In this document: one piece after another, positions 1 to 53,814 of the stretch
Layout: each line of letters starts with the position of its first letter
Position numbering within the stretch: position 1 is the stretch's first letter
Assembly: GCF_011801125.1 (NCBI RefSeq)
Contig: NZ_CP046171.1
Location: 1,302,001-1,366,000, forward strand
Direction of reading: 5' to 3'
DNA length: 64,000 nucleotides
From: Nocardia brasiliensis
GTDB lineage: Bacteria > Actinomycetota > Actinomycetes > Mycobacteriales > Mycobacteriaceae
Notes under the pieces: model-generated
Databases searched by the model: none
Told to the model about the DNA's origin: nothing
Seen by the model: the letters and a program-made list of their open reading frames with translations, nothing else
Position numbers and translations under genes: made by a program

Positions 1-1235
1 CCGTGCTCGCCGGTGATGGTGCCGCCGAGCGCGATCGCCAGATCCATGATCTCGCCGAAGGCGCGGTGCGCGCGTTCGGTCATGGCGGCGTCGGCGGGGT
101 CGTGCACGATCAGCGGGTGCGTGTTGCCGTCGCCCGCGTGCGCGATCACCGAGATGATCACGTCGTTGCGGGTGGCGATCTCGGCGACACCGGTCACCAG
201 GTCGCCGAGCCGGGGCAGCGGCACGCCGACATCTTCCAGCAGCAGCGCGCCCCGCTTCTCCACCGCGGGAATCGCGAACCGCCGTGCCGCGGTGAAGGCT
301 TCGCCTTCCTCGGCGTCGGCGGTATGGAAAGCCTCTGTCGCGCCCGCCTTTTCACAGGCGGCCAGCATGATCTCGGCTTCGCGCCCGGCGAATTCGCCAG
401 GCGCGTCGGACCGGGCGACCAACAGCGCGGCGGCCTTGCGATCCAACCCCATGCGCAACTCGTCCTCGACCGCGTTGATCGAGACGGAGTCCATGAATTC
501 CAGCATGGCGGGCCGCAATTCGCCGGTGATGGCGAGAATCGCGTCGACGGCGGCGGTCAGCGTCGCGAACGAGGCGACGACGGTGCTCTGCGGCGGCTGG
601 GCGGGCAGCAGGCGCAGCGTCAGTTCGGTGATGACGCCGAGGGTGCCCTCGCTGCCGACGAACAGCTTGGTCAGCGAGAGTCCCGCCGAATCCTTGAGCC
701 GGGGCCCGCCGAGCCGCAGCACGGTCCCGTCGGCGAGCACCACCTCCATGCCGAGCACGTAATCGGTTGTCACGCCGTACTTCACGCAGCACAGCCCGCC
801 CGCGTTGGTGGCGGCGTTGCCGCCGATCGAGCAGATCTCGAACGAGGAGGGGTCGGGCGGATACCAGAGGCCGTGCTCGGCGACGGCGCGCTTCACCTCG
901 GCGTTGAGCAGGCCGGGCTGCACCACCGCGGTGCGGGTGACCGGGTCGACGGTGATCGCCCGCATCCGTTCGGTGCTCAGCACGAGTCCGCCGTCGACCG
1001 CCGTGGCGCCGCCGGACAACCCCGATCCCGCGCCGCGCGGCACCACCGGTACCCGGCGCTGGTGCGCCCAGCGCAGCGCCGTCGCGACCTCCTCGGTGCT
1101 GGTCGCGCGCACGACCGCGACGGGCGTGCCCGCGTCGGGATCGCGCGCCCAGTCCTGCCGGTAGCCCGCCAGCAGATCGGGGTCGGTGACGACCGCGCCC
1201 TCGGACAGTCCATCGATCAGCTCACTCACGTCCAC
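1..1235 (-). CDS. FAD-linked oxidase, GlcD / D-2-hydroxyacid dehydrogenase type (3' end cut by window)
   Basis: Oxidises a 2-hydroxyacid such as glycolate or D-lactate with FAD. The N-terminal PCMH-type FAD-binding domain shows PRGAGSGLSGGA and, further on, SFEICSIGGNAATNAGG and GSEGTLGVITE. The C-terminal FAD-oxidase domain follows, with the conserved HAGDGNTHPL near the window edge. About 411 codons are visible of a family that usually runs 450-480, so only the tail is missing. The start is taken as GTG at 1235, which gives an N-terminus VDVSELIDGL; GTG at 1229 is an in-frame alternative. The gene is divergent from gtrA. The exact substrate cannot be read from the sequence. Confidence 0.88.
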   Translation of the reverse strand, partial: MDVSELIDGLSEGAVVTDPDLLAGYRQDWARDPDAGTPVAVVRATSTEEVATALRWAHQRRVPVVPRGAGSGLSGGATAVDGGLVLSTERMRAITVDPVTRTAVVQPGLLNAEVKRAVAEHGLWYPPDPSSFEICSIGGNAATNAGGLCCVKYGVTTDYVLGMEVVLADGTVLRLGGPRLKDSAGLSLTKLFVGSEGTLGVITELTLRLLPAQPPQSTVVASFATLTAAVDAILAITGELRPAMLEFMDSVSINAVEDELRMGLDRKAAALLVARSDAPGEFAGREAEIMLAACEKAGATEAFHTADAEEGEAFTAARRFAIPAVEKRGALLLEDVGVPLPRLGDLVTGVAEIATRNDVIISVIAHAGDGNTHPLIVHDPADAAMTERAHRAFGEIMDLAIALGGTITGEH

Positions 1236-47772: not shown

Positions 47773-47847
47773 GCGGGCGTGGCTGAGTGGTTGAGGCAAC
47801 GGTCTGCAAAGCCGTTTACGCGGGTTCAATTCCCGCCGCTCGCTCCA
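47773..47847 (+). tRNA. tRNA-Cys (GCA)
   Basis: The 75-nt gene has acceptor GCGGGCG paired with CGCTCGC, anticodon loop CTGCAAA (anticodon GCA at 47806-47808), T arm GCGGG-TTCAATT-CCCGC, discriminator T and an encoded CCA. Its 3' 42 bases are duplicated at 53773-53814; it is the integration site of the adjacent element and remains intact. Confidence 0.92.
47804..47845 (+). repeat. att site, tRNA-side copy (42 bp)
   Basis: Identical to 53773-53814. It begins in the anticodon loop and ends at the first C of CCA, so integration preserves the tRNA. Confidence 0.92.
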
Positions 47848-47889: not shown

Positions 47890-49104
47890 TCATGCGGTCC
47901 GCAGTTCGTCCGCAGCAGCTTGGGCACCGGCCTCCATGCCATCCGCAACGATGTCCAGATCGTCCGGGAACAGATGGCCGTACAAGTCGAGGGTGAGCGT
48001 CGCGGTTTTGTGGCCGAGCATCCTTTGGACGACCTTGATGTTCGCTCCGGCGCTGATCGCGAGAGACGCTGCGGTATGGCGTAGCCCGTGCGGTATGAGC
48101 CCCTTGAGGCCAGCCGAATTCGCAGCCTCGTTGAACGCGCGTCGGAACTCGTTGTACTCCAGGATTCCGCCGTCCTTCTCGCTCGGGAAGAGAGGTGCAC
48201 TCGATTCGCTTCCCTCCGTGAGCTTTTCGAGGTCCTTCGCGAGCGTGGCAGGGATCGGAACCGTGCGCGCGGTGTGGTTCTTCGTGTCTGTCACCACGGT
48301 TCCTTGCCCCGTCACAGCAGTTGCCGAACGGGACACGCGGATACGCCGGTTGGCTACGTCAACATCCATCACCCGCAACGCTGACGCCTCACCGATGCGG
48401 ATGCCTGTGTACGCCAGGGTGAACACGAGCGGACGCAACCGACCCGCAGCCAGGCCCAGCCGCATGACCTCCAAGTGGGTCAGGTATGGCCGCTCACCCG
48501 CCAGCGTCGACGGAAGCTCGATGTCGACGGCAGGATTGCTCACGAGCCGTTTCGATTTCACCGCGAACCGCAGCACCTGGCTAAACACCTGGTACGACTG
48601 GATGACGCGTGATGCCGACAGGCCCTTGCCCTTGAACCGAGTGCTTCCCGACTCCGACAGGAGCACGACCCATTCCTGAATGTCTTCAAAGTCGATGTCC
48701 CGCAACGGCACTGAACCCCACCGCCGCAGTACGACAGTATCGAGCAGCGAGCGATAGCCTGCCACGGTCTTCGGCTTGCGGAATTTCTTTGTCTCATACC
48801 ACTTCTCTGCGACCACCGAGAACAGCACACCGCTACGGTCCGGGTCGACCCACGTACCGGTCACGACCTTGGTCGTCACTTCGCTATCAATCCAGCGCTG
48901 TGCCTGCACCTTGGTATCGAACGACTGCGACCGCTCTACGCCGTTGGGATCGACATACCGAGCCCGCCACCGCTTGCCCTTGCCGAAACGTTCCTCCGAC
49001 TTCACCTTCTTCTTCGACTTCGCGCCCGTCACCGGGTCTGTTTCGACCACGGTAGGCCACCAGCGATCCTCGATGCCTGAACGCGGATTACGTCGAGTCG
49101 CCAT
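47890..49104 (-). CDS. int: Tyrosine recombinase (integrase) of the element
   Basis: A 404-aa phage-type integrase. The catalytic residues are all present: Arg236 in AYTGIRIGEA, His339 and Arg342 in PHGLRHTAASLAI, His365 in MLGHKTATLTLDLYGH, and Tyr375. The N-terminal Arm-type and SAM-like domains occupy about residues 1-190. The gene reads toward the tRNA, and its stop is 43 bp from it. One-base overlap with xis (TGATG). Confidence 0.96.
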   Translation of the reverse strand: MATRRNPRSGIEDRWWPTVVETDPVTGAKSKKKVKSEERFGKGKRWRARYVDPNGVERSQSFDTKVQAQRWIDSEVTTKVVTGTWVDPDRSGVLFSVVAEKWYETKKFRKPKTVAGYRSLLDTVVLRRWGSVPLRDIDFEDIQEWVVLLSESGSTRFKGKGLSASRVIQSYQVFSQVLRFAVKSKRLVSNPAVDIELPSTLAGERPYLTHLEVMRLGLAAGRLRPLVFTLAYTGIRIGEASALRVMDVDVANRRIRVSRSATAVTGQGTVVTDTKNHTARTVPIPATLAKDLEKLTEGSESSAPLFPSEKDGGILEYNEFRRAFNEAANSAGLKGLIPHGLRHTAASLAISAGANIKVVQRMLGHKTATLTLDLYGHLFPDDLDIVADGMEAGAQAAADELRTA

Positions 49105-49320: not shown

Positions 49321-51012
49321 TTACGCCACTTCCGGCGAATCTTGCTGCGGGTCGCCGTGTTCGGGTGGCCCGTCCTGGTCGGCTGCTGCTGCCAGTTGGG
49401 CGTTCGTGTATTCGGCTTGATGGGCGAGCTTCTGCGACACCATCGCCATGATCAGGTGCTCACGAGGAGGCACGTTCGGGTCACCTGGCTGCACGGGCGT
49501 GATCACCAGCTGCTCTACCTCGGGACGCGGGATACCGGCCTGTTCGAGCATCTGCCGAACGAACTCGGTCCGGTCAGCCCGATGGTCGGCGAGGTCCTTT
49601 CCGGTCCACTTGCGCGACACCAGGACCCGGCGACCACGCAGGCCCAGGGTGGAGCGGCGGTGTGCCTTGCCCTTGCACACGCCGGGGATCGTCTTGGCCT
49701 TCGCACCCTTGGGGACGATGCCGTAGCGGAACCACACCCCGCACGTAGGCGAGCACGGCGTCAGCGCGAGTTCGGCATGGAGACGGTCGTAGTGGTCGGC
49801 GGCGGCCTGGGAGGCGGGTTCGATCACGTCGCCGATGGACTTGGTCAGGTACTTGGTCAGGTAGCCGATATGGCGCCTGGCTTCCTCGGTGCCGCCCAGG
49901 ATGCCTTTGGCGTCGATCTGGGCACCGAAGCGGATCACGTGCGCGGGCTCCAGCTCGTCTACCGCGTCCATGGCGTCGAGGGCTTCGGCCCACGTGGTGA
50001 CCGGCACCCGCTCACCCGTCTCGGGATCGATGGCGTCGGGGTCGACGAAACGGCCGGCCGCGTAGTCCCAGAACGGCATCCGATCCATGGAGTACACCTC
50101 CTGGTCGAAGTGCGGCCACCACACCTGGTGATAGGTCGCCGCGGCTACCTGCCGGATCAGCGCCTTCGGGTCGGTGCCCCGCACACCCATGTGCACGTGT
50201 GGCGCTCCCCGCCGTTGCGGTTCGACCGTGGCGAAGTACTGGATATCGCGCCCCGAGGCTCGCCGGTAGTTCTGCACGAACCGGTCGTAGAGGGCCGCGA
50301 AGTGGATGATGTCGCGGGCCGCCTGGCGGTAGTCGTAGGTCGAGGGGTCGACCGGTGCGCCGTGGGCGTCGACACGGCCGTAAGAGGGCAGGGTGAGGGT
50401 CAGGAACATCGAGGGCCGGTACTTGCCCGCGTACACCCGCCCCACGGTGGTCTTCTCCACCTTCTTACGCGGCAGGTCCGGCACCGCCTGACGCCGCTTG
50501 GTCGAACGCTGACGAGCAGTCCTCGGCTTGGGCTCCAGCGGCGGGAACCCACCCCGGATACCCGACGCTCGCAGCTCTTCGTCCAGCTCTCCCACCACCT
50601 CGCGAATCGCGTCCATGGCTTCCTGGTCGTCTTCGTCCTTGGCAGTCGTGTACTGCTCGGCCAACGCCGTGCGAGCCCTCAGCAAGTCACGCTGCTGCTC
50701 GGTCGGTTCGTTCTTGGCGATCACTGGTTCCTCCTCGATGTGCCAGCCCTCATGTGCCTGTTGCTGACGCAGCCGCAACGCCCGCAACGCGCACGCAGGG
50801 CACACGCACTCCAGCGTCGACTTACACGGCGTGCCAACGTATTTCGTGCTGCCATCGGCAGCGGTAGACATCATCGGCAACGGGCGTCGGCACACCCCGA
50901 CCTTCTCCGCCGACGCCGCTGCCAACTCCGTCAAGTTCAACTTCGCTCGCCGGTCCGCCGCAGTCTCACGGACCGGCACCACTAGATCGATCACCACATC
51001 CGCGCCACTCAC
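49321..51012 (-). CDS. RepSA-type replication initiator (HUH endonuclease-like)
   Basis: A 563-aa replicase. Motif 1 MFLTLTLPSYG (202-212), HUH motif PHVHMGV with His272 and His274, and HIGYLTKYLTK with candidate catalytic Tyr374/Tyr378 support rolling-circle initiation of the RepSA type. A Cys cluster (CPAC at 71-74 and CSPTC later) may bind zinc. GTG 51012 overlaps the upstream gene (GTGA). Confidence 0.9.
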   Translation of the reverse strand: MSGADVVIDLVVPVRETAADRRAKLNLTELAAASAEKVGVCRRPLPMMSTAADGSTKYVGTPCKSTLECVCPACALRALRLRQQQAHEGWHIEEEPVIAKNEPTEQQRDLLRARTALAEQYTTAKDEDDQEAMDAIREVVGELDEELRASGIRGGFPPLEPKPRTARQRSTKRRQAVPDLPRKKVEKTTVGRVYAGKYRPSMFLTLTLPSYGRVDAHGAPVDPSTYDYRQAARDIIHFAALYDRFVQNYRRASGRDIQYFATVEPQRRGAPHVHMGVRGTDPKALIRQVAAATYHQVWWPHFDQEVYSMDRMPFWDYAAGRFVDPDAIDPETGERVPVTTWAEALDAMDAVDELEPAHVIRFGAQIDAKGILGGTEEARRHIGYLTKYLTKSIGDVIEPASQAAADHYDRLHAELALTPCSPTCGVWFRYGIVPKGAKAKTIPGVCKGKAHRRSTLGLRGRRVLVSRKWTGKDLADHRADRTEFVRQMLEQAGIPRPEVEQLVITPVQPGDPNVPPREHLIMAMVSQKLAHQAEYTNAQLAAAADQDGPPEHGDPQQDSPEVA

Positions 51013-51401
51013 CCGATCACCCCGTGCACCCGCAGGCCCTCCAGCCGATCAGCCGACCACCGAACCGGCTTCCCACCATCAGCAGGCCACGCCTCCCACC
51101 ACTCCGACTCAGCCACCGCAGCGCCATCAGGCCGCAGCTCCACCACCTCCGCCACCGGCCGAGGCGTCGCCTCCATCACCCCGCCGAAGCAGTTACACCG
51201 CTCATTCGCCGTATCCGGATCCACGTGCCCGCCCACGTACTCGCTACCACCGCACCGCTCGCACACCTCCCACACCGACTGGGCATGAAGCGACACGCAC
51301 CGCGCCGAAACACAATGCTGCCCAAGGCAATACATGCACCATCCCGACAAGTTCAATCGCGGCGGACGAAGCTCGGTCGCGGAAGTGGTCGAAGCCTGCA
51401 T
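51009..51401 (-). CDS. Cys-rich hypothetical protein upstream of rep
   Basis: A 130-aa protein with CMYCLGQHC, CVSLH, CERCGG and CNC motifs, probably one or two zinc ribbons. The C-terminal half is acidic and Trp-rich (ESEWWEAWPADGGKPVRW). GGGGG precedes the ATG. GTGA overlap with rep. It may regulate replication; no family recognised. Confidence 0.65.
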   Translation of the reverse strand: MQASTTSATELRPPRLNLSGWCMYCLGQHCVSARCVSLHAQSVWEVCERCGGSEYVGGHVDPDTANERCNCFGGVMEATPRPVAEVVELRPDGAAVAESEWWEAWPADGGKPVRWSADRLEGLRVHGVIG

Positions 51402-51435
51402 GATGACCCCCTAGGTCAGTTCCCTTATGTTTATG

Positions 51436-51540
51436 ACCCCTAAACTCGAATTCCGGTCCGATCCATTTGCCGAATTTAGGGGGGATAAACACGAGACTAC
51501 GCCCGTTCATGCGTCCGGTCAAGGGGGTCTAAACTCAAGC
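51436..51540. promoter_or_regulatory. Divergent control region with repeated CTAAACTC/CTAAATTC operators
   Basis: CTAAACTC occurs at 51441-51448 and 51529-51536, and the related CTAAATTCGGCAA on the opposite strand at 51468-51480. The last 13 bp recur at 53180-53192. The second site includes the TAAACT -10-like hexamer (51530-51535) six bases before the GTG of the next gene. Probable autoregulation by the HTH protein. Confidence 0.6.
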
Positions 51541-51541
51541 T

Positions 51542-52378
51542 GTGGCCACTGGTGCTGACGACTTCGAACAGGTGCGGGACGACCCGGACCCGATCAGGCG
51601 CGGCCGCCGAGCCGCCGAACTGATGACCATCTACCAGCAGCGAGCCACCGAACTGGCGCGGCTACGGAAAGCTGCGATCGAGCAGGCTCACCGCGAGGGG
51701 ATGAGTTATACCGAGATCGCCGAGCAACTTGGCATCACGAAGGGGCGGATCACGCAGATTCGCGCCACCGCCCCGCAGTCCGAACGCGCCTTCTTCGGTG
51801 TTGGCCCCGTGGCTGTCGGCATTCCGCGCCGACTGGGATTCGAGGAAGGGCGCGAACGGCCCTTCTTCGACGCAAACGACCAGGCAACGCAGGAGAAGGT
51901 GGAAGCCACTCTTGCGCGACTTTCCTTAGCCACCAGTCGATTTGCTATCGATCCCACTGACGAGAAGACGCCCGACGGCGATTGCGTCGTCATCTGTGGC
52001 CCCAAGTCCGCACCGGTCGCGCGACATCTACTGGATCGTGACCCGTACCTCGGTTTCGAGCGGACTGAAGAGGGTTGGTGGATTGCCGACGCCCGGACTG
52101 GGCAACGGCACCGCTCGCCCTACCTGCGGGATAATTCGGTCCGTTCCGATCTCGGCTACTTCTCGCGGCGGCGCGAAGACCACCACGTGATTGTCCATAT
52201 CGCGGGCATTACTGCCGTCGGATCGCACGGCGTCGCGCATTGGATCGACCAGCATGTCGGCGAAATCTTCGACCCCTCAACGGAATTCGTCAGTGGGGTA
52301 GTGGAATGCGACTTCGACGCCGACTTTGCTGTCACGGGCAGTCGGTTGTTCGTCGGCCCGTATGCGGAGCGGGAATGA
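51542..52378 (+). CDS. HTH protein with unknown C-terminal sensor-like domain
   Basis: A 278-aa protein. The N-terminal coiled region and HTH YTEIAEQLGITKGRITQIR (sigma-region-4-like) cover residues 20-75. The C-terminal domain (about 145-278) has VVICGPKSAPVARHLL, GWWIADARTGQRHRSPYL, SDLGYFSRR and VIVHIAGITAVGSHGVAHWI; it is a repeated pattern in actinobacterial HTH proteins that has no assigned ligand, to my knowledge. GTG 51542 appears leaderless. ATGA overlap with the phosphatase indicates a joint function. Confidence 0.78.
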   Translation: MATGADDFEQVRDDPDPIRRGRRAAELMTIYQQRATELARLRKAAIEQAHREGMSYTEIAEQLGITKGRITQIRATAPQSERAFFGVGPVAVGIPRRLGFEEGRERPFFDANDQATQEKVEATLARLSLATSRFAIDPTDEKTPDGDCVVICGPKSAPVARHLLDRDPYLGFERTEEGWWIADARTGQRHRSPYLRDNSVRSDLGYFSRRREDHHVIVHIAGITAVGSHGVAHWIDQHVGEIFDPSTEFVSGVVECDFDADFAVTGSRLFVGPYAERE

Positions 52379-53166
52379 ACGTCGCTACTGCCCAGCTTCC
52401 TTCGAAGTCCAACGAGGATCGAGTACTCACCGCAACCTCTAGTGTCATCGTGCTGGACGGAGCGACCTCATTTGACTCTGCGGCACCTGCGGGTGCTTAC
52501 GTCGATGTCCTCGGGGACGAACTGTGCCGACGACTCAGCGGCACCGACGATCTTCGCGAAGCCCTGTCTGGTGCCATTGCCGCGACAGCAGACAGGCTGT
52601 CCATCCGGGCCGGGCACGCGCCATCGTGCACGGTCGCAATGCTGCGTCTCCGTCCCACTGCGCTCGACGTTCTGGTCCTAGGAGACTCGCCCGCAATTGT
52701 CGGCATGCTCGACGGTTCGCATCACGTCCTCGCCGATGAGCGACTCGAACGTCTCGACCTCCCGGAGTCCGATCAGTACCGCAATCGACTCCGCTCAGGT
52801 GCTGGATACGACGACGCCCACCGTGGAATTCTGCGATCCCTCCAGCGTCAGCAACGTCAGCGGCGCAACCGCGCTGGCGGCTACTGGATCGCTGAAGCGG
52901 ATCCGACCGCAGCCCATCACGCGATCGTTGAGCAACTACCACCCGACGACGTGTCATGGGTCATCCTCGCGACTGACGGCGCTGCTAAACCTCTTGTGCC
53001 ACTTGGTATCACGTGGCCGGAAATCGCCGACCTCGGACCCGCTGCGTTGTCGCAGCTCCTCGATCGATGCCAGCAATGGGAAGCTCACATCGACCCGGAC
53101 GGCCAGCTTCAGCCGAGGGCCAAGCGGCACGACGACAAGACGATCGCGGTTGTTCGCCTGCCATAG
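52375..53166 (+). CDS. PP2C-family protein phosphatase-like
   Basis: A 263-aa protein with the PP2C metal-site order: SNEDRV (Asp15), VLDGATSF (Asp28-Gly29), VLGDSPAIVGML (103 onward), VILATDGAAKP and, at the end, HDDKTIAVV. All three metal-binding Asp groups are present, so it may be active, probably as a Ser/Thr phosphatase. It is smaller than typical regulators and has no extra domain. It is co-translated with the HTH protein; no kinase is in the element. Confidence 0.85.
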   Translation: MNVATAQLPSKSNEDRVLTATSSVIVLDGATSFDSAAPAGAYVDVLGDELCRRLSGTDDLREALSGAIAATADRLSIRAGHAPSCTVAMLRLRPTALDVLVLGDSPAIVGMLDGSHHVLADERLERLDLPESDQYRNRLRSGAGYDDAHRGILRSLQRQQRQRRNRAGGYWIAEADPTAAHHAIVEQLPPDDVSWVILATDGAAKPLVPLGITWPEIADLGPAALSQLLDRCQQWEAHIDPDGQLQPRAKRHDDKTIAVVRLP

Positions 53167-53772: not shown

Positions 53773-53814
53773 CTGCAAAGCCGTTTACGCGGGTTCAATT
53801 CCCGCCGCTCGCTC
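53773..53814 (+). repeat. att site, distal copy (42 bp)
   Basis: Perfect copy of 47804-47845, the 3' half of tRNA-Cys, without a 5' half; not a functional tRNA. Confidence 0.92.

What the first reader, a model, noticed from the sequence alone, without database searches (positions are those of the whole stretch)
51542..53166. Overlapping HTH-sensor and PP2C-like phosphatase on a mobile element: candidate undescribed regulatory or defence module
The two genes overlap by ATGA and are the only cargo besides integration and replication genes. The first joins a sigma-region-4-like HTH to an unassigned domain with VICGPKSAP and IAGITAVGSHG. The second has all PP2C metal-site motifs but no partner kinase. 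A sensor regulator co-translated with a phosphatase on a small element suggests ligand-triggered control or a host-response role. The function is not known from the sequence.
Basis: partly seen in the sequence, partly recalled or inferred. Interest (0 to 1): 0.8.

Follow-up and report, generated by a model that had tools for sequence, protein, structure and literature searches.

The report
Phosphatase-linked control switch of mobile element
A small mobile DNA element in a soil actinobacterium carries a paired DNA-binding regulator and protein phosphatase that most likely act as its own on/off switch, and similar pairs, often with the same DNA control sites, occur in mobile elements of related bacteria.

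Summary
Two genes overlapping by ATGA (51542-52378, 52375-53166) lie on a ~6.0-kb element between 42-bp direct repeats at tRNA-Cys, with Int, Xis, RepSA and a small ORF. Gene 1 joins a sigma-region-4-like HTH to a domain without a Pfam family; gene 2 is a PP2C-fold phosphatase with its metal motifs conserved.

The pair is not free cargo. Upstream of gene 1, 55 of 58 loci carry exactly three ~17-bp palindromic operators (GTTTA-N6/7-TAAAC); shuffles gave none. In this 7.95-Mb genome the site (<=2 mismatches) occurs three times, all here. Two operators overlap the -35 and predicted start of a promoter for the opposing ORF4-RepSA-Xis-Int operon (pattern in 48 of 58 loci).

The two other RepSA elements of this genome have GntR-type (KorSA-like) regulators there instead. 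A core operon 61-64% identical in four proteins compared is under GntR+HAD in one element and HTH/PP2C in another.

Best reading: element master regulator, with the phosphatase tuning the repressor. The regulatory role is well supported. What PP2C dephosphorylates, and which way it pushes the switch, is inferred, and the sequence evidence for that part is mixed. Defence is not supported.

The parts
47773..47847 (+). tRNA-Cys (gca), integration target
   Evidence: ARAGORN
47804..47845 (.). left attachment repeat (42 bp, inside tRNA-Cys)
   Evidence: perfect 42-bp direct repeat
47890..49104 (-). tyrosine integrase (404 aa)
   Evidence: PF00589, 85.5 bits
49104..49307 (-). putative excisionase (67 aa)
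   Evidence: HTH_17/AlpA, below cut-off; position between rep and int
49321..51012 (-). RepSA-type replication initiator (563 aa)
   Evidence: PF20199, 330.7 bits
51009..51401 (-). ORF4, first gene of the divergent operon (130 aa, Cys-rich)
   Evidence: no Pfam match; relatives in L080, L084, L091, L094, L099, L116
51429..51445 (.). operator Op1 GTTTATGACCCCTAAAC
   Evidence: array conserved
51474..51490 (.). operator Op2 (minus strand GTTTATCCCCCCTAAAT), covers the predicted start of the divergent promoter
51518..51534 (.). operator Op3 (minus strand GTTTAGACCCCCTTGAC), overlaps the -35 of the divergent promoter and a -10-like TAAACT (51530-51535) before the GTG start
51494..51522 (-). predicted promoter P_L of the ORF4-RepSA-Xis-Int operon: TTGACC (51522-51517), 17 nt, TAGTCT (51499-51494)
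   Evidence: pattern in 48 of 58 loci; the strict consensus scan found none
51542..52378 (+). regulator: sigma-region-4-like HTH plus C-terminal alpha/beta domain (278 aa)
52375..53166 (+). PP2C (PPM) family Ser/Thr phosphatase (263 aa)
53773..53814 (.). right attachment repeat (42 bp)

Best explanation
The pair is the master control module of a pSAM2-type integrated element. The HTH protein, probably a dimer, binds three palindromic operators about 44 bp apart in the divergent intergenic region. It represses the promoter of the ORF4-RepSA-Xis-Int operon (one operator at the -35, one at the start site) and its own promoter, and so keeps the element integrated and silent. The co-translated PP2C tunes this repressor. 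The version I commit to is that PP2C removes phosphates that host Ser/Thr kinases place on the HTH protein and so keeps it able to bind DNA, while the C-terminal domain docks PP2C or senses a ligand. Shown by sequence: the genes, their coupling, the operator array, its confinement to this element, the conserved promoter pattern and the swap with GntR control. Inferred: DNA binding by this protein, repression rather than activation, the phosphatase's substrate, and the direction of its effect. The confidence given is for the control-switch role; the committed PP2C mechanism alone is about 0.3.
Against: No binding or phosphatase assay exists. 10 of 58 loci lack the promoter pattern, and the strict consensus scan found no promoter here. 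13 of 42 mobile-type HTH genes in 148 Nocardia genomes have no PP2C match next to them (compared by eye), and 24 of 80 PP2C loci failed my test for a full HTH gene (at least L093 has a near full-length HTH match), so neither partner is strictly needed. The five plasmid and three viral-contig relatives do not show the three-site array with the patterns (L163 has one site). The phospho and docking hints do not hold for the wider family: of seven plasmid or viral relatives that are paired with PP2C, two have G153, none has S156, and three (L157, L164, L165) lack Ser/Thr at 71; the six chromosomal paralogues without PP2C keep G153. P0096, which shares its longest contig length with a PP2C (P0139), reads CGPESAP. 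The seven solos are two lineages at most. Ser/Thr at 66 and 71 may be plain DNA contacts. HTH-RepSA distances also correlate (r = 0.78, 19 loci).
Confidence: 0.8

Rival explanations
1. The regulator is the element's switch (as in the best explanation), but PP2C works as an anti-repressor or acts on a host phosphoprotein, for example to shape recipient physiology during transfer, and only shares the promoter. This rival overlaps with the best explanation in its first half.
For: PP2C occurs without an intact HTH beside it (24 of 80 loci failed the full-HTH test); in some of these it lies next to APH-type kinase genes (L095, L127, L150) or a HAD hydrolase (L125), so it may have another substrate. 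The loop and Ser/Thr hints fail in plasmid and viral relatives. Tandem switches of a regulator and a second protein are known in ICEs (ImmR/ImmA; search listing).
Against: Within AICE-type loci the CGPxS loop is invariant with PP2C and altered in the seven solo loci inspected, which points to a functional link.
Confidence: 0.42
2. Anti-phage defence or exclusion module carried as cargo: the sensor detects an invader and the phosphatase triggers a host response.
For: Mobile location; relatives on plasmids that also carry genes annotated as Pycsar effectors or Abi.
Against: No PADLOC match at E<=1; divergent position against the core operon, with operators found nowhere else in the genome at <=2 mismatches; replaced by a GntR regulator in sister elements; no effector domain in the Pfam scan.
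Confidence: 0.05
3. Toxin-antitoxin or kil-kor type addiction pair.
For: Two short coupled genes on a small element, with an operator over the start that suggests autoregulation.
Against: Each gene is found without the other in natural genomes. Toxicity was not tested.
Confidence: 0.04
4. The HTH protein is an alternative sigma factor for element genes, as several database names suggest.
For: Region-4-like HTH; names such as 'sigma-70 family'.
Against: No region 2 match in Pfam; palindromic operators overlapping a -35/-10 type promoter fit a dimeric repressor better.
Confidence: 0.04

Closest known systems
pSAM2 KorSA/Pra control (Streptomyces ambofaciens)
   Same: Element-encoded regulation of a repSA-xis-int operon (passages of PMC3218068 and PMC8584621 found by term).
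   Different: KorSA is a GntR protein that represses pra, and Pra activates the operon; here a sigma-4-like HTH with an undescribed C-terminal domain and a PP2C phosphatase take that place, with three palindromic operators directly at the predicted operon promoter.
GntR(+HAD) modules of the sister AICEs in the same genome (L172, L173)
   Same: Equivalent divergent position; in L172 the regulator is also followed by a hydrolase gene (HAD); core operon of L172 61-64% identical to that of L074 in the four proteins compared.
   Different: Unrelated protein families; no match to this operator in L172 even with 3 mismatches.
ImmR/ImmA of ICEBs1
   Same: A regulator and a second protein encoded in tandem as the switch of an integrated element (start of the abstract of PMC8960796 in a search listing).
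   Different: As recalled, an XRE-type repressor and a metalloprotease that cleaves it irreversibly; here a PP2C, which would act reversibly.
PstP / tPphA bacterial PP2C phosphatases
   Different: Sequence identity 13-17% in the structural alignments; on a mobile element, coupled to a DNA-binding regulator, no kinase on the element.

Membership tests
PPM/PP2C phosphatase | PP2C fold | tested here: met
PPM/PP2C phosphatase | conserved metal-site acidic residues | tested here: met
   D15, D28, D201, D253-D254 invariant in 37 sequences
PPM/PP2C phosphatase | metal-dependent phosphatase activity | not testable with these tools
   needs enzyme assay
AICE (pSAM2 type) | tyrosine integrase and tRNA att repeats | tested here: met
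AICE (pSAM2 type) | RepSA-type replication initiator | tested here: met
   PF20199 330.7 bits, cut-off 34
AICE (pSAM2 type) | excisionase | tested here: inconclusive
   small HTH protein, Pfam hits below cut-off
AICE (pSAM2 type) | FtsK/TraB transfer gene | tested here: not met
   none of the six element proteins scanned is FtsK-like; the related element L074 has one. So this copy is pSAM2-like but has no transfer gene of its own.
KorSA/Pra regulators | GntR-family DNA-binding domain (KorSA) | tested here: not met
   Pfam gives sigma-70 region 4 / HTH_23, no GntR
ImmR/ImmA | metalloprotease partner | tested here: not met
   partner is PP2C
Sigma-70 factor | region 2 | tested here: not met
   only region 4 matched
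Known anti-phage defence systems | match to a PADLOC-DB model | tested here: not met
   0 matches at E<=1 for 3 proteins
GH67/GH84/GH115 N-terminal-like domain | fold of the C-terminal domain | tested here: inconclusive
Toxin-antitoxin pair | toxicity neutralised by partner | not testable with these tools
   natural single-gene loci argue against it

The most novel reading that the evidence does not exclude
A reversible, phosphorylation-gated integrate/excise switch: the element's repressor is phosphorylated by host Ser/Thr kinases at its recognition helix and reset by its own co-translated PP2C, which docks on a new sensor domain through the CGPxS loop. Actinobacterial mobile elements would then read host kinase signalling to decide when to leave the chromosome, and regulator-plus-enzyme modules would be exchanged between elements like cassettes.
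Probability: 0.28. Interest if true: 0.85.

Novelty: new variant of a known kind. Interest (0 to 1): 0.67.

Why it matters
It turns a gene pair with misleading database names (sigma factor, integrase, hypothetical) into a testable control switch of integrated elements and, perhaps, plasmids of Actinomycetes: PP2C relatives at E<=1e-20 occur in 46 of 394 genomes and 24 of 137 genera sampled (a lower bound). The DNA sites are defined to the base, so binding and repression can be tested at once. If the phosphatase step holds, it links horizontal transfer to host Ser/Thr kinase signalling.

Tried and rejected
Defence: PADLOC scan empty. Solved relatives by sequence: none convincing for either protein or for the C-terminal profile. 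Structure searches of the regulator: no Foldseek match at E<=0.001 in PDB or in the viral library. Phage records: no HTH relative and two weak PP2C relatives on unannotated records. IMG/VR: six PP2C relatives at 30-32% identity; three of them have the HTH too, but ten neighbouring proteins showed no phage structural domain (hits were DnaB, AAA, HTH/DUF5753 and glycosyltransferase), so these may be plasmids or chromosomal islands. An IMG/VR scan with the regulator profile gave one short match. The sigma-factor reading was rejected for lack of region 2. A toxin-antitoxin reading was set aside because either gene occurs alone. The C-terminal fold match to glycosidase N-domains suggested no ligand and was not used for function. 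Literature: no description of the pair was found in searches (search listings; open-licence PMC papers only; most subscription papers are missing). For PMC3218068, PMC8584621 and PMC9513070 I saw passages found by term, not the whole texts; the passages and counts shown did not mention PP2C.

I therefore lowered the novel reading from 0.33 to 0.28, the best explanation from 0.82 to 0.80 and the interest from 0.68 to 0.67, and raised the first rival from 0.40 to 0.42.

Rows dropped: L162 (start mis-called) and L124 (HTH internally deleted) were left out of the 64-pair statistics but L124 is inside the 58; five plasmid and three viral-contig loci were left out of the 58-locus operator and promoter counts. 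L032 (G212) was not resolved. The genome scan kept the best 80 of 169 confirmed stretches. The multi-genome searches scored only 6-21 candidates per genome, so their counts are lower bounds. Of 120 listed HTH relatives, 21 differ from CGPKSAP; whether these are paired with PP2C was not determined.

Full report
Setting. The window lies in a 7.95-Mb single-contig genome; the named near relatives of the two proteins are mostly from Nocardia. The element runs from the 42-bp repeat inside tRNA-Cys (47804-47845) to its copy at 53773-53814, about 6.0 kb. On the minus strand are ORF4, RepSA, a putative Xis and Int, nearly contiguous (ORF4/RepSA overlap by 4 bases, Xis/Int by 1); on the plus strand are the regulator and the phosphatase. 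None of the six proteins is FtsK/Tra-like.

Linkage. A scan of named genomes with the PP2C profile returned 80 loci (best of 169). A full HTH gene by my criterion lies next to PP2C in 56 of 80; the other 24 include remnants or near full-length matches of the HTH gene (for example L093, L103, L138) and loci with unrelated neighbours. Where a start could be set (66 loci, including the window, five plasmids and three viral contigs), the gap is -25 to +19 nt in 65, the exception being a mis-called start. Among 46 scan loci with at least 6 kb upstream of an HTH start, 32 have an Int, Xis or RepSA relative on the opposite strand within 8.5 kb; 14 do not with these single-sequence queries. In 148 Nocardia genomes every genome has a relative of the regulator and 44 have a PP2C match; 42 HTH loci are of the mobile type (>=349 bits) and 29 of these have PP2C adjacent (compared by eye). 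On the five plasmids read, the pair stands divergent from a long operon, in three of five with a gene annotated FtsK or TraB.

The operators. Printing the DNA upstream of the regulator showed repeated palindromes. Of 58 loci, 55 have exactly three sites within 2 mismatches of GTTTA-N6/7-TAAAC; one locus has four, one two and one one; shuffles gave none with three. In the window the sites are 51429-51445, 51474-51490 and 51518-51534, centres 45 and 44 bp apart. In the whole genome the pattern GTTTANNCCCCCTAAAC with up to 2 mismatches occurs exactly three times, here, and the reversed control pattern never. On the minus strand a TTGAC(N)-16..18-TANNNT promoter begins in Op3 and its predicted start falls in Op2; it is present in 48 of 58 loci against 0.06 in shuffles and 2.9% when the -35 is held fixed. 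The strict scan did not report it, because its -10 is of the TANNNT type. On the plus strand TAAACT ends 6 nt before the GTG start, which suggests a leaderless, autoregulated transcript (inference).

Control-module swap. The same genome holds three RepSA elements. The other two have a GntR gene (L173, with UTRA) or GntR plus a HAD hydrolase (L172) at the equivalent divergent position, and L172 has no match to the operator even with 3 mismatches. The core operon of L172 and that of L074, which is next to HTH/PP2C, are 62% (first gene), 61% (DUF2637, over 142 residues), 64% (FtsK) and 63% (RepSA) identical. Similar core operons therefore come with different control modules, which is strong evidence that HTH/PP2C does a job like that of KorSA/Pra in pSAM2 (passages of PMC3218068 and PMC8584621).

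Is PP2C part of the switch? For: HTH and PP2C distances correlate (r = 0.85, 64 pairs), though RepSA distances do too (0.78 and 0.74 over 19 loci). Within AICE-type loci G153, P154 and S156 of the CGPxS loop are invariant in 57 of 57 paired loci, while seven inspected solo regulators without PP2C read CEPEAAP, CAPGSAP or CDPGSAP; by eye the four CEPEAAP loci keep all three operators. The CEPEAAP solos sit beside the same amidohydrolase-like gene as the intact pair of G082 (L017), so PP2C seems to have been lost in place there. Positions 66 and 71 are Ser or Thr in 57 of 57; the chromosomal paralogue, which lies next to tatB/htrA-like genes in the seven loci inspected (gene names recalled from sequence), has His at 71 in 6 of 6 aligned. 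Against: these seven solos are at most two lineages; P0096 (CGPESAP) probably still has PP2C; and in the wider family the rule breaks. Of seven plasmid or viral relatives with PP2C, only two have G153, none S156, and three lack Ser/Thr at 71, while the six chromosomal paralogues without PP2C keep G153. So the phospho-switch and the docking loop are hypotheses with mixed support.

Verdict. A real and widespread control module for which my searches found no description; the switch role is about 0.8 likely, the specific phospho-switch a little over one in four. Kind: new variant of the known element-repressor switch, not categorically new.

Noticed in passing
L002 (own genome) and L009, L010, L012-L015: A chromosomal paralogue of the regulator without PP2C lies beside tatB/htrA-like genes in these seven loci; every one of 148 Nocardia genomes has a relative of the regulator. 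Upstream of it, in four loci viewed, stands GTCTAGAC or a close variant, similar to Op3, which suggests autoregulation with a diverged operator.
   Followed up: partly
L172 (G000:C1:756000-775000) and L173 (G000:C1:12000-31000): Two more RepSA elements with FtsK genes in the same genome, with GntR or GntR+HAD at the control position. They might mobilise the element of the window, which has no transfer gene.
   Followed up: partly
L095, L127, L150; L125: PP2C genes of this family lie next to APH-type kinase genes or a HAD hydrolase where no HTH gene was found.
   Followed up: no
L161 (pRL1), L162 (pVMKU), L163, L164 (pXL100), L165: Plasmid copies of the pair diverge from a long operon but lack the three-palindrome array; by eye a different motif with a run of C or G (GTCAACCCCC-like) precedes the gene in several.
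   Followed up: partly
L154, L157, L158 (IMG/VR contigs): HTH+PP2C pair on contigs classed as viral; among ten nearby proteins tested, domains such as DnaB and HTH/DUF5753 but no phage structural domain.
   Followed up: partly
database names of relatives: Some HTH relatives are named 'nitrogen fixation protein NifE' or 'sigma-70 family' and some PP2C relatives 'integrase', which the sequence does not support.
   Followed up: no
window 51009-51401: ORF4 is a Cys-rich small protein that opens the divergent operon; relatives lie near the pair in L080, L084, L091, L094, L099 and L116; function unknown.
   Followed up: no
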